A stretch of 49,962 bases of DNA from Candidatus Aenigmatarchaeota archaeon (GTDB lineage: Archaea > Aenigmatarchaeota > Aenigmatarchaeia > GW2011-AR5 > JACRMX01), in assembly GCA_018304635.1 (NCBI GenBank), contig JAGVVW010000003.1, positions 1 to 49,962 of the forward strand, written 5' to 3'. The position numbers and the translations under genes are program-made. Below, in pieces: positions 43,338-49,962 of the stretch. Every line of letters starts with the position of its first letter. The first letter of the stretch is position 1. The notes below the pieces were generated by a model. It was given only the letters and a program-made list of their open reading frames with translations, was not told where the DNA came from and did no database searches.

Positions 43338-44585
43338 GTGGATAACTTGGTAAGAATCAGGAAAACTCATATAATATTCGCAATTCTTGTAATCATGTTT
43401 TTGTTTAGTATATACCTTCGCGTTTTTGGCTTCTTTACAAACAATTTTCAATATTTACGGAACATTGATTCATTCATGTTTTTAAGGAGAACAATAGATA
43501 TTGTTCAAACAGGTGGAACACCTTCGGTAGATTATTTAATGCTAGCTCCTGTTGGAAAAGCTGTTACATTCGGTCCTGTATTATACTCATACATTGCAGC
43601 TTATTCGTACATGTTCATTAATGTTGTAGCGCCCGTGCAGGTATGGCAGTGGCTTATATGGTTTCCGGTTATTTTAGCTTCTCTTGTTATATTCCCGATG
43701 TATTTTATTGGAAAAGCTCTTTATAGCAGAAAAGCTGGGTTGTTTGCAGGTTTTTTTGTAACGTTTTCAGCAGCCAATGTTGCCCGTTCATTGGGTGGTG
43801 ACCCTGACACTGATGCGATTGTTATTTTAATACCCATCATATGCATGGCATTTTTCTTTTTGTCTTACAAAGCACTAGAAAAGGGGTGTTTGTTTACTAA
43901 AAAATCCTTATTGTTTGCAGCACTCACAGGAATTTCCCTGGCAATATTTGCAAACATTTGGCCTGGCTACTGGTATGTTCTGTGGATAATTACTGGTTTT
44001 GTTATACTCTATCTGATATTAGATACGGGTTTGTCATATTTTCTGCATAAAGTACAGCCAAAAGAAATTGCAACAAAGCACAAGGCAATGCTGTTAAATT
44101 TAGCTATAATTATAATCTGCTTTGTGATACTGACAACAATAACAATGGGCTTTAATTATGCTGCATCTGCTGTAGCTGAGCCATTAAGCTTATCCGGTAT
44201 TTCACGCAGCGGTGATGCTGCACTGAAAAGTGAATCGGGTGAATTTCCAAATGTCTATGTCTCTGTACAGGAACTGATGGCAGGTGGTGAGTTAAAAGAT
44301 ATAATTACTAAAACCAGCAATATTGAATTGAGCGGCATTGCAATCTTAATATCTCCATTCATGCTTACAGTTTATGTGATTCTCTATACATTATACAGGT
44401 TCATCAGGCACAGAGACCATTTAGATACTTTTACACTTTTAGTAATATGGTTCGTTGGCGGGATTTTTGCGAGCATGGTTGCTGTAAGATTCACAATGTT
44501 TTTGGTTGGCGTTATCTCACTGGGTTCTGCAATATTCTTTGCAAGAATATGGGATTATGCATTTGAAAAAGCGAAGAGGAAATAA
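43338..44585 (+). CDS. oligosaccharyltransferase STT3/AglB, N-terminal transmembrane portion (split gene)
   Basis: RNIDSFMFLRR, LGGDPDTDAIVILIP (DxD), FPNVYVSVQELM (SVSE-like); ends at FARIWDYAFEKAKRK*. Confidence 0.85.
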   Translation: MDNLVRIRKTHIIFAILVIMFLFSIYLRVFGFFTNNFQYLRNIDSFMFLRRTIDIVQTGGTPSVDYLMLAPVGKAVTFGPVLYSYIAAYSYMFINVVAPVQVWQWLIWFPVILASLVIFPMYFIGKALYSRKAGLFAGFFVTFSAANVARSLGGDPDTDAIVILIPIICMAFFFLSYKALEKGCLFTKKSLLFAALTGISLAIFANIWPGYWYVLWIITGFVILYLILDTGLSYFLHKVQPKEIATKHKAMLLNLAIIIICFVILTTITMGFNYAASAVAEPLSLSGISRSGDAALKSESGEFPNVYVSVQELMAGGELKDIITKTSNIELSGIAILISPFMLTVYVILYTLYRFIRHRDHLDTFTLLVIWFVGGIFASMVAVRFTMFLVGVISLGSAIFFARIWDYAFEKAKRK

Positions 44586-44641
44586 AAGAAAAAGAAGGGG
44601 TGTAATAAAGAAAAATAACAGCGATTAAAACCGCCAAATTG

Positions 44642-44688
44642 TTTTTCTTTCCGTACAGGCTTTCTTTTTTGAAAAAGAAAGGGTGTCT
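44642..44688. repeat. leader element D between the split STT3 cistrons
   Basis: TTTTTCTTTCCGTACAGGCTTTCTTTTTTGAAAAAGAAAG; first 24 nt identical to 35467-35490. Confidence 0.8.
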
Positions 44689-45639
44689 ATGAGGATAAAT
44701 AAGTATCATATTATGATGGCTATAGTAGTAGTATTTACAATTAGTTATGCATATTTTTTATATTATGACCCGAGCTGGCAGATTTCCCGTTATTCAGGAA
44801 CTGTACTGAGCAATAACTGGTACGAAGCACTGAACTGGATCAAAGACAATACACCAGAATGCACTGTAATTGCAACTTATTGGGATCCTGGACATTTTAT
44901 AACAGGCATTGCAGACAGGCCTGTTGTTTTTGACGGGGCCACTCAGAATTCAGAATTATATATTGATAAAGATGGCCATTATCTTCTTGATTATGATCCT
45001 GAAAAAGTAGTTGCCAAACGCTCCCGTATTCAGGATATAGGAACCACACTTTATACGGATAATGAAACAGAAGCAATGGATATTTTGCGTTATTATAAAT
45101 TTGAAAACTGCTCTGACCCGATGTATTACATTGCTTCAAACGACTTGATATTCAAAAGCCAGTGGTGGAGCTATTTCTCCACATGGAATACTATTGACAA
45201 AGGAAAGAAGTCAACATATGCTATAATAAATGCTGGCGGCCAGAAACCATTGCTCGCATACAATGTAATAGCAACTGAATTTTCTGTTGGAGATAATCAG
45301 GCATTTCTATTATACCAGAATCAGACAAGCGGAGAAAAGAAAATGCTTTTCCAGGCAGGCAACCAGTTTCTAAAAATCCACAGGTTTATATATATTGACA
45401 GTCAGGGATACATGAAAATGCAGACTGAAGATGATTTTCAGGTACCAGGCACTGCAATGATACTACCGGGCGACAGTCAGCTGATTTACATGCCACCTGA
45501 ACTTGAAAATTCAATGTTCACACGGATGTTCATTTTCCGCGGACAGGGGCTTGAAAATTTTGAATACGTCAAAAACTGGGGCGGAGAAGTTATTTTGTAC
45601 AGGGTTAATTTCCCGGAAATGAAGAAGAGGCAACTCTGA
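44683..45639 (+). CDS. oligosaccharyltransferase STT3/AglB, last TM plus C-terminal soluble portion (split gene)
   Basis: NWYEALNWIKDNTPECTVIATYWDPGHFITGIADRPVVFDG aligns with the WWDYG-motif region; start GTG 44683 or ATG 44689. Confidence 0.85.
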   Translation: MSMRINKYHIMMAIVVVFTISYAYFLYYDPSWQISRYSGTVLSNNWYEALNWIKDNTPECTVIATYWDPGHFITGIADRPVVFDGATQNSELYIDKDGHYLLDYDPEKVVAKRSRIQDIGTTLYTDNETEAMDILRYYKFENCSDPMYYIASNDLIFKSQWWSYFSTWNTIDKGKKSTYAIINAGGQKPLLAYNVIATEFSVGDNQAFLLYQNQTSGEKKMLFQAGNQFLKIHRFIYIDSQGYMKMQTEDDFQVPGTAMILPGDSQLIYMPPELENSMFTRMFIFRGQGLENFEYVKNWGGEVILYRVNFPEMKKRQL

Positions 45640-48043: not shown

Positions 48044-49153
48044 GTGAAATCAAGATATATGAACATCTGTATTTTATCCGAGCTGTTTTATCCATATGTA
48101 CTTGGCGGAGCTGAGCGAAGGTATATGGAAATAGCAAAGCGGCTTTCCAAGAAACACGAAATTACAGTATACAGTCTTCGTTTGCATGGTTTTCCAAAAA
48201 CAGAAATCTGGGAAAACATTACAATAAAACGCGTTGGCATGGAGCATCCGTTGAATAAAAGATTTCTTCCAGCACTTGCAACCTATGCATCTCCACTGTT
48301 GAGATGCATGAAATCTGAGTATGATGTAATTGACATGAATCAGGGCATTGCAATGTATGCTTCTATATTTTCTCCAGCTACTCATCGCCCAATGATTGCA
48401 ACATTTCATGATATCTATGCTGATGCATGGAAAAAATATTATCCAGGATTCTACTCTTTTGTTGGCAAAGTAATGGAATATGGATGGTCTATGCTTGCTT
48501 TTGATTCAGTAATAGCAAATTCCTTTCAGACAAAAGAAAAATTAGAACAGCTGGGCATTAAAAATGCAACTGTTATTAACAGTGGCATTGACCTGAAGTT
48601 TATTAATAGCATTCGTTCAAAAAAGACAAACTCTATAGTTTATGTCGGCAGGTTAGTTGATTATAAGCATGTTGATGAGCTGATAATAGCATTCAAAGGA
48701 ATAGAGAAACAGTATCCAAATACTACACTAAAAATTATAGGCAGTGGTTATGATGAGCAAAGGCTGAAAAATATCGCAGCTAATGACAAGAGAATAAAAT
48801 TTTTTGGTTATGTTTCTGAAAAAGATAAGATAAGGCATATAAAATCAGCGTCCCTGCTTGTAAATCCTTCAGAAGTAGAAGGTCTTGGATTAATATTATT
48901 AGAAGCAATGGCCTGCAGAACGCCGGTTATGGCAAAAGCTCTTTCGTGTTATAAAGATTTTGCAATTGCTGGGAAAAATGCTTTTATAACAAATAAAATA
49001 ACAGCAAAATCTATACTCAAGATTCTGGACAACAAAAAACTTCAGAATAACCTATCTGCTGAAGGCCATGCCACAGCTAAAAATTTCACATGGGACAAAA
49101 CAGCTGAAAGGGTTGAGAGGATTTATCAGAATCGTAGCTTTAATACTGTCTAA
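48044..49153 (+). CDS. GT4-family glycosyltransferase
   Basis: FYPYVLGGAERRYMEIAKRL; IVYVGRLVDYKHVDELI; VNPSEVEGLGLILLEAMACRTPV. Confidence 0.95.
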   Translation: MKSRYMNICILSELFYPYVLGGAERRYMEIAKRLSKKHEITVYSLRLHGFPKTEIWENITIKRVGMEHPLNKRFLPALATYASPLLRCMKSEYDVIDMNQGIAMYASIFSPATHRPMIATFHDIYADAWKKYYPGFYSFVGKVMEYGWSMLAFDSVIANSFQTKEKLEQLGIKNATVINSGIDLKFINSIRSKKTNSIVYVGRLVDYKHVDELIIAFKGIEKQYPNTTLKIIGSGYDEQRLKNIAANDKRIKFFGYVSEKDKIRHIKSASLLVNPSEVEGLGLILLEAMACRTPVMAKALSCYKDFAIAGKNAFITNKITAKSILKILDNKKLQNNLSAEGHATAKNFTWDKTAERVERIYQNRSFNTV

Positions 49154-49168
49154 AAATAATTAATTTAT

Positions 49169-49558
49169 ATGAAGGGAATAACACCCGTGATTGCCATTGT
49201 GCTTCTTTTAATGATAACTATAACACTGGTTGGTTTTGCGTTTATCTGGTTCCAGTCTACTTTTCAACAAATTACTGCAACAGTAACTAGGCAGATAGAT
49301 CAACAGACAACTGCAATTGGAAAGATGGTAAGAATAGATTCTATTACAATAGATTCTATTGCCATCAGAAATGTGGGAAGTCAGAATATTGCTGCGAATG
49401 AAATTGCTGTTTTTGTGGATGATGAAAAGCAAACTTATATTTTACCGAATGATATTATTGTGGGTCAGGTTGCTTCGTATACGTTAAATACTCCATGTAC
49501 CTCTAGTAAGACTGTTAAAGTAACATCTCCTGGTGGATCAGATAAGACAACATGCTAA
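49169..49558 (+). CDS. archaeal type IV pilin-like protein
   Basis: MKGITPVIAIVLLLMITITLVGFAFIWFQ class III signal/hydrophobic helix; small beta-rich C-domain. Confidence 0.88.
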   Translation: MKGITPVIAIVLLLMITITLVGFAFIWFQSTFQQITATVTRQIDQQTTAIGKMVRIDSITIDSIAIRNVGSQNIAANEIAVFVDDEKQTYILPNDIIVGQVASYTLNTPCTSSKTVKVTSPGGSDKTTC

Positions 49559-49962
49559 ACCGAAATTGAATTTCAAGGACAGACAACTTGTTTAGAAACT
49601 GAATTTTTAAGCATTTTTTTATTTTATAGATAAACAGACAACTGCATTCGGGAAAACTGTTAGGATAGAAGCTGCTGCTGGAAATTCTGTTTCAATAAGA
49701 AATGTCGGAAGCCAAACTATCGCCGTGAATGAAATTGCTGTCTTTGTAGATGGTTCAAAGCAAGGTAATAATTTACCAAGTGATCTTATTGCGGGTCAGG
49801 TTCAACAATATACATTAACTAATGCATGCAGTGGCACTGGTGTAACTACTGTTAAAGTAACAGCTCCTGGTGGATCAGATAAGACAACATGCTAAACCGA
49901 AATTGAATTTCAAGGACAGACAACTTGTTTAGAAACTGAATTTTTAAGCATTTTTTTATTTT
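49511..49962. repeat. direct repeat, copies 49511-49625 and 49848-49962 (offset 337)
   Basis: 115 bp with one mismatch (49526 vs 49863), by direct letter comparison; reaches the window edge. Confidence 0.95.
49626..49895 (+). pseudogene. start-less C-terminal pilin cassette (silent-cassette candidate)
   Basis: Translates IDKQTTAFGKTVRIEAAAGNSVSIRNVGSQTIAVNEIAVFVDGSKQGNNLPSDLIAGQVQQYTLTNACSGTGVTTVKVTAPGGSDKTTC*. In-frame TAA at 49608, with no ATG/GTG/TTG between it and the cassette. Confidence 0.88.

What the first reader, a model, noticed from the sequence alone, without database searches (positions are those of the whole stretch)
49169..49962. Expressed pilin gene followed by a silent C-terminal cassette: candidate archaeal antigenic-variation locus
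The gene at 49169-49558 encodes a constant N-terminal pilin helix plus a C-terminal domain. Directly downstream, 49626-49895 encodes only a homologous C-terminal domain, starting at IDKQTT (gene: IDQQTT, 49295). It has no signal peptide, no start codon, and an in-frame stop just upstream. Homology is highest at both borders: a 21-nt block ATAGATnAACAGACAACTGCA at the 5' side and a 115-bp one-mismatch block across the stop codon and 3' flank. The interior is clearly diverged. Conserved borders around a variable core are the hallmark of gene-conversion cassettes such as Neisseria pilS. The last cassette unit ends at the window edge, so more cassettes may follow.
Basis: partly seen in the sequence, partly recalled or inferred. 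Interest (0 to 1): 0.9.

Follow-up and report, generated by a model that had tools for sequence, protein, structure and literature searches.

The report
Archaeal pilin with silent partial copy
In an uncultured DPANN archaeon, a gene for a surface-fibre subunit is followed at once by a silent second copy of its outer domain that must have exchanged DNA with another pilin sequence, which resembles the way gonorrhoea bacteria vary their pili, but only one such copy is visible before the assembly stops, so actual switching is unproven.

Summary
An intact type IV pilin gene (49169-49558) is followed head-to-tail, with no spacer, by an open but start-less copy of its C-terminal domain (49626-49895). 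The units share a 115-nt 3' block with one mismatch, while the coding cores are about 69-74% identical. A simple recent duplication cannot give this mosaic; some recombination or gene conversion must have occurred. The core divergence is in frame, with dN/dS about 0.43.

The antigenic-variation reading is possible but unproven. Only one cassette exists in the 1.08-Mb MAG. None was found in 156 genomes of the class or in 125 fetched loci, where pilins occur as full-length genes, singly or in tandem. The 5' border is not clearly more conserved than an internal stretch.

The window ends where the contig ends. 68 of 104 contig ends in this MAG carry terminal exact repeats of 96-99 nt (never more), so the assembler's k was evidently 99. 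The window's end is such a 99-mer, repeated internally. The break is explained by this repeat and does not tell whether more cassettes follow.

Best description: a recombining pilin locus with a pilS-like silent copy in a Candidatus Aenigmatarchaeota archaeon, not a demonstrated switching system.

The parts
49169..49558 (+). Full-length type IV pilin gene, 129 aa (MKGITPVIAIVLLLMITI...). Predicted as one N-terminal helix (residues 4-51) plus a beta-sandwich domain.
   Evidence: Pilin_N E=0.0016, below the curated cut-off; profile hit to solved filament subunit 8fk7, 'Flagellin', E=5.5e-10; pLDDT 88
49169..49294 (+). N-terminal part (42 codons: leader and most of the helix), present only in the first copy
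49295..49625 (+). Unit 1 (331 bp): C-domain of the intact gene plus 67-bp 3' flank
49626..49962 (+). Unit 2 (337 bp): start-less copy directly abutting unit 1
49626..49895 (+). Silent C-domain cassette, 89 open codons, 64% aa identity to the gene
49608..49610 (+). In-frame TAA upstream of the cassette
   Evidence: direct reading
49511..49625 (+). 3' block, copy 1: last codons, stop and 3' flank (last 99 nt 49527-49625 identical to copy 2)
49848..49962 (+). 3' block, copy 2 (last 99 nt 49864-49962 identical to copy 1); its end is the end of the contig
48044..49153 (+). Context: GT4-family glycosyltransferase gene ending 15 bp upstream of the pilin gene

Best explanation
This is a type IV pilin locus of a DPANN archaeon (Candidatus Aenigmatarchaeota) consisting of one expressible pilin gene and one adjacent, start-less copy of its C-terminal domain. 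SHOWN: the anatomy, the identical 3' border, the diverged in-frame core. INFERRED: homologous recombination (gene conversion) has acted here at least once. Either the 3' end of an old partial duplicate was recently overwritten, or one core of a recent duplicate was replaced from a third pilin sequence not in the assembly. The silent copy is therefore at least occasionally a donor or recipient of pilin sequence. Conversion bounded by the shared 5' segment and the 3' block would swap the whole beta-domain in frame under a constant N-terminal helix, as in pilE/pilS. NOT SHOWN: that this is frequent, programmed or adaptive.
For: Exact head-to-tail units with no spacer. 115 nt with 1 mismatch against 62 mismatches in the other 216 aligned columns. 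Core dS 0.60, dN 0.26; a neutral simulation gives both no stop and as many synonymous changes in only 0.35% of runs, so at least part of the divergence arose under selection on protein, not in a dead copy. The 6-nt indel keeps frame. The cassette starts inside the last turns of the N-terminal helix and contains the entire predicted beta domain. A RadA/Rad51-like recombinase gene and secretion ATPase genes are in the genome. No reverse transcriptase was detected, and substitutions are not A-specific, so this is not a diversity-generating retroelement.
Against: Only one cassette and one genome; no population data. No cassette-only copy in 156 genomes of the class or in the fetched loci with 147 pilin-like ORFs. 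Tandem pilin duplication is common in the group (L013, L015, L023), so a partial duplicate with a converted end could be an accident. Part of the protein-level constraint may come from the expressed copy's branch alone.
Confidence: 0.55

Rival explanations
1. A dedicated antigenic- or phase-variation system like Neisseria pilE/pilS: an array of several silent C-domain cassettes downstream feeds variants into the expressed gene by gene conversion, using the 3' block as homology anchor.
For: Anatomy matches point by point: constant N-terminus only in the expressed copy, start-less donor-like copy, shared 3' repeat spanning the stop and flank. The contig breaks exactly at the shared block.
Against: Only one cassette seen. 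The contig break is fully explained by the 99-nt repeat and an assembler k of 99. No cassettes in relatives. The 5' anchor is not clearly conserved beyond the core. No variant of the expressed copy is known.
Confidence: 0.2
2. Remnant: two full tandem pilin genes, as in relatives, of which the second lost its promoter and N-terminus by deletion; its 3' end was homogenised once, and it has no role.
For: Full-length tandem pilins are common in the order (G001, G022, G023, G025, G003). The cassette's protein-like divergence fits a recent life as a full gene. Pilins in archaea are prone to tandem duplication (PMC4858521).
Against: The junction falls exactly at the end of the shared 3' block, with no remnant of a promoter or N-terminal codons. 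In relatives' tandem pairs the 5' half is the better conserved part, the reverse of what is seen here.
Confidence: 0.2
3. Assembly or strain-mixture artefact: the second unit is another strain's C-domain joined through the repeat.
For: MAG assembled with k=99 and broken at repeats throughout.
Against: The junction TTTTATTTT|ATAGATAAACAG lies outside the shared repeat, so a false join at the repeat would still need a real molecule in which the 3' flank is followed directly by a start-less cassette. Nothing similar precedes the C-domain in the full gene.
Confidence: 0.05

Closest known systems
Neisseria pilE/pilS pilin antigenic variation (class I locus)
   Same: Type IV pilin; expressed gene with constant N-terminus; silent copies lacking the N-terminus; shared 3' repeat at the end of the gene (the 66-bp Sma/Cla repeat in Neisseria, PMC4023411; a 115-nt block here)
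   Different: Here one visible cassette instead of several (eight in closed class I meningococcal genomes); G4 element not sought; no demonstrated switching; different pilin family (archaeal, Ig-like domain)
VARTIG modules of Thermococcales (PMC8416519)
   Same: Archaeal surface protein whose C-terminal Ig domain is inferred to vary by recombination with smaller genes encoding only that region
   Different: Not a pilin; exchange there is between species and not detected within a locus; the small genes are genes, not start-less cassettes
Tandemly duplicated archaeal pilin/archaellin genes (PMC4858521)
   Same: Tandem pilin copies, also seen in the relatives here (L013, L015, L023, L091)
   Different: Relatives' copies are full length and most conserved at their 5' half; here the second copy lacks the start and N-terminus and is most conserved at the 3' end

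Membership tests
Archaeal type IV pilin (Pilin_N, PF07790 type) | Short positively charged leader and hydrophobic N-terminal helix followed by a beta-rich domain | tested here: met
   MKGITPVIAIVLLLMITI; helix 4-51 then strands, pLDDT 88; PF07790 hit is below the curated cut-off (19.7 vs 25.2 bits); profile match to solved filament subunit 8fk7, E=5.5e-10
pilE/pilS-type antigenic variation | Silent partial copies lacking the conserved N-terminus and a start | tested here: met
   49626-49895
pilE/pilS-type antigenic variation | Several silent cassettes | tested here: inconclusive
   One cassette; contig ends; none elsewhere in the 88%-complete MAG
pilE/pilS-type antigenic variation | Shared homology blocks at both ends of the variable region | tested here: inconclusive
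   3' block clear (P=3e-12), 5' block weak (P=0.004, equalled by an internal stretch)
pilE/pilS-type antigenic variation | Variant cores at the expressed locus within a population | not testable with these tools
pilE/pilS-type antigenic variation | Upstream G4 element needed for switching in Neisseria | not tested
   Specific to Neisseria; not sought systematically
Diversity-generating retroelement | Reverse transcriptase and adenine-specific differences between template and variable repeat | tested here: not met
   No RVT_1 match in the genome; 18 of 63 substitutions have A in unit 1 and 17 in unit 2

The most novel reading that the evidence does not exclude
A dedicated pilin-diversifying locus in a DPANN archaeon, in which start-less C-domain cassettes are fed by gene conversion into one expressed pilin, to vary contact with host cells or evade pilus-binding viruses. 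To my knowledge, and in my literature searches, no pilE/pilS-like system has been reported in Archaea.
Probability: 0.2. Interest if true: 0.85.

Novelty: new variant of a known kind. Interest (0 to 1): 0.45.

Why it matters
DPANN archaea are thought to live attached to host cells, and pili are obvious contact structures. A reservoir of silent pilin domains would be a first archaeal parallel to bacterial pilin antigenic variation and would raise the question of what drives surface variation without an adaptive immune system: host specificity, viruses, or kin recognition. Even as an evolutionary accident, the locus shows how such a system could start: a partial tandem copy kept homologous at its end by conversion.

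Tried and rejected
(1) Extending beyond 49962: impossible, the contig ends there. (2) Further copies in the MAG by DNA, pattern and protein: none. (3) Finding the downstream piece via a gene that follows pilins in relatives: it lies on C20 with no pilin or shared block next to it, so it cannot be joined. (4) Cassettes in relatives: apparent ones in L105 and L121 are frameshifted N-termini and those in L106 are full genes. (5) Viral contigs: none. First genome-contig scan: no relative. (6) DGR: rejected. (7) The 10-mer ACAGACAACT at both ends of each unit looked like a recombination signal, but a repeated 10-mer in 331 nt occurs by chance in 12-20% of cases. (8) Structured DNA or a known RNA in the 3' block: no. 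(9) Loop-biased variation of the domain: trend only, P=0.16.

Full report
Observation. The window is the complete contig C41 of a 1.08-Mb, 52-contig, 88%-complete genome. Its last 794 bases hold a pilin gene (49169-49558, 129 aa) and, immediately after the gene's 3' flank, a second copy that begins at codon 43 of the gene. The two units, 49295-49625 and 49626-49962, abut without spacer. The second has no start codon near its beginning (only an in-frame GTG at residue 34), and an in-frame TAA lies at 49608-49610. The last 115 nt of the units differ at one position and the last 99 nt are identical, although 67 of those are non-coding; the remaining 216 aligned columns carry 62 substitutions (Fisher P = 3e-12; permutation test). 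The 5' block (20/21) is less remarkable: another 21-nt stretch inside the core is as well conserved.

What the mosaic means. A recent tandem duplication would leave the core as similar as the flank; an old one would leave the flank as different as the core. The core has dS 0.60 and dN 0.26, while the non-coding 3' flank has no difference in 67 nt. So recombination has either overwritten the 3' end of an old copy or replaced the core of a recent one. The divergence is not that of a copy decaying freely: under neutral substitution only 1% of simulations give as many synonymous changes, 18% avoid stops, and 0.35% do both. Some of this constraint could come from the expressed copy's branch, so the result argues against a fully dead history but does not date the loss of the N-terminus.

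The protein. The gene belongs to a family of short pilins widespread in the order (matches in 75 of 97 genomes searched). The model shows a helix (4-51) and a beta-rich domain (54-128) at pLDDT 88. Profile search finds a solved filament subunit (8fk7, 'Flagellin', E = 5.5e-10), and the fold search puts a Haloferax type IV pilus and the FlaF soluble domain first, though weakly (no match at E <= 0.001). The cassette thus contains the end of the helix and the complete outer domain, and its frame matches the gene's, so a swap would produce an in-frame protein. Secretion ATPases and a RadA/Rad51 gene are present in the genome.

Relatives. Named relatives are Candidatus Aenigmatarchaeota. Tandem pilins occur there as full-length genes, most similar in their 5' half (L013, L015, L023). 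No start-less C-domain copy was found in 156 genomes of the class, where every other match lies in an open frame of at least 131 aa, nor around 147 pilin-like ORFs in the fetched loci. The nearest genome held is only a member of the same family, so close relatives could not be compared.

The contig end. The last and first 600 bases of all 52 contigs were compared: 68 of 104 ends carry an exact terminal repeat of 96-99 nt, 43 of exactly 99 and none longer, most of them in insertion-sequence-like repeats. The assembler's k was therefore evidently 99. The window's end is such a terminal 99-mer, its other copy being 49527-49625. The break is thus produced by the repeat itself. It is compatible with two units followed by unrelated sequence or with a longer array. 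The smallest contig in the bin is 5,870 bp, so a short downstream contig would have been left out. A false join does not easily explain the second unit, because the junction after TTTTATTTT lies outside the shared repeat.

Comparison. The layout is that of pilE and pilS in Neisseria, where silent partial copies convert the expressed gene and a 66-bp Sma/Cla repeat lies at the gene's 3' end (PMC4023411). Resemblance is in layout only: multiple cassettes, a clear 5' anchor and population variation are untested or inconclusive. In archaea, the VARTIG loci of Thermococcales vary a C-terminal Ig domain by recombination with smaller genes (PMC8416519), and the same paper cites the variable region of the pilin UpsA as determining self-recognition. 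Literature searches found no archaeal pilin cassette system, within an open-access library only.

Verdict. The feature is real and unusual within its group, and recombination has occurred. The step to antigenic variation rests on one cassette and one assembly. It merits a targeted look at the source reads.

Noticed in passing
G000, contig ends (L128-L231): Most contig ends of this small DPANN genome lie in about a dozen families of dispersed repeats that look like insertion-sequence ends (e.g. GGCTGTGGGACAAAACC, GCTGTGTTGCACAA, CCTGACTTCGCCACTTA), one cluster of 21 ends: apparently a high mobile-element load for a 1-Mb genome.
   Followed up: partly
L091 (JACPRW010000003.1) 1-646, same as L030: Two tandem pilin genes share an exactly identical 141-nt N-terminal segment starting at the ATG, and the contig stops at its end, again a k-mer-sized repeat in a pilin array, but with the N-terminus conserved.
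   Followed up: partly
G000 C14_L, C23_R, C40_L, C51_L: Contig ends made of long imperfect tandem repeats (about 82-95% alike), possibly repeat-rich surface proteins.
   Followed up: no
window 49303-49312, 49579-49588, 49634-49643, 49916-49925: 10-mer ACAGACAACT lies near the 5' start and in the 3' flank of each unit; a chance explanation is adequate (12-20%).
   Followed up: yes
window 43338-45639: AglB/STT3-like oligosaccharyltransferase appears split into two consecutive ORFs (43338-44585 and 44683-45639), possibly a broken or two-part gene.
   Followed up: no
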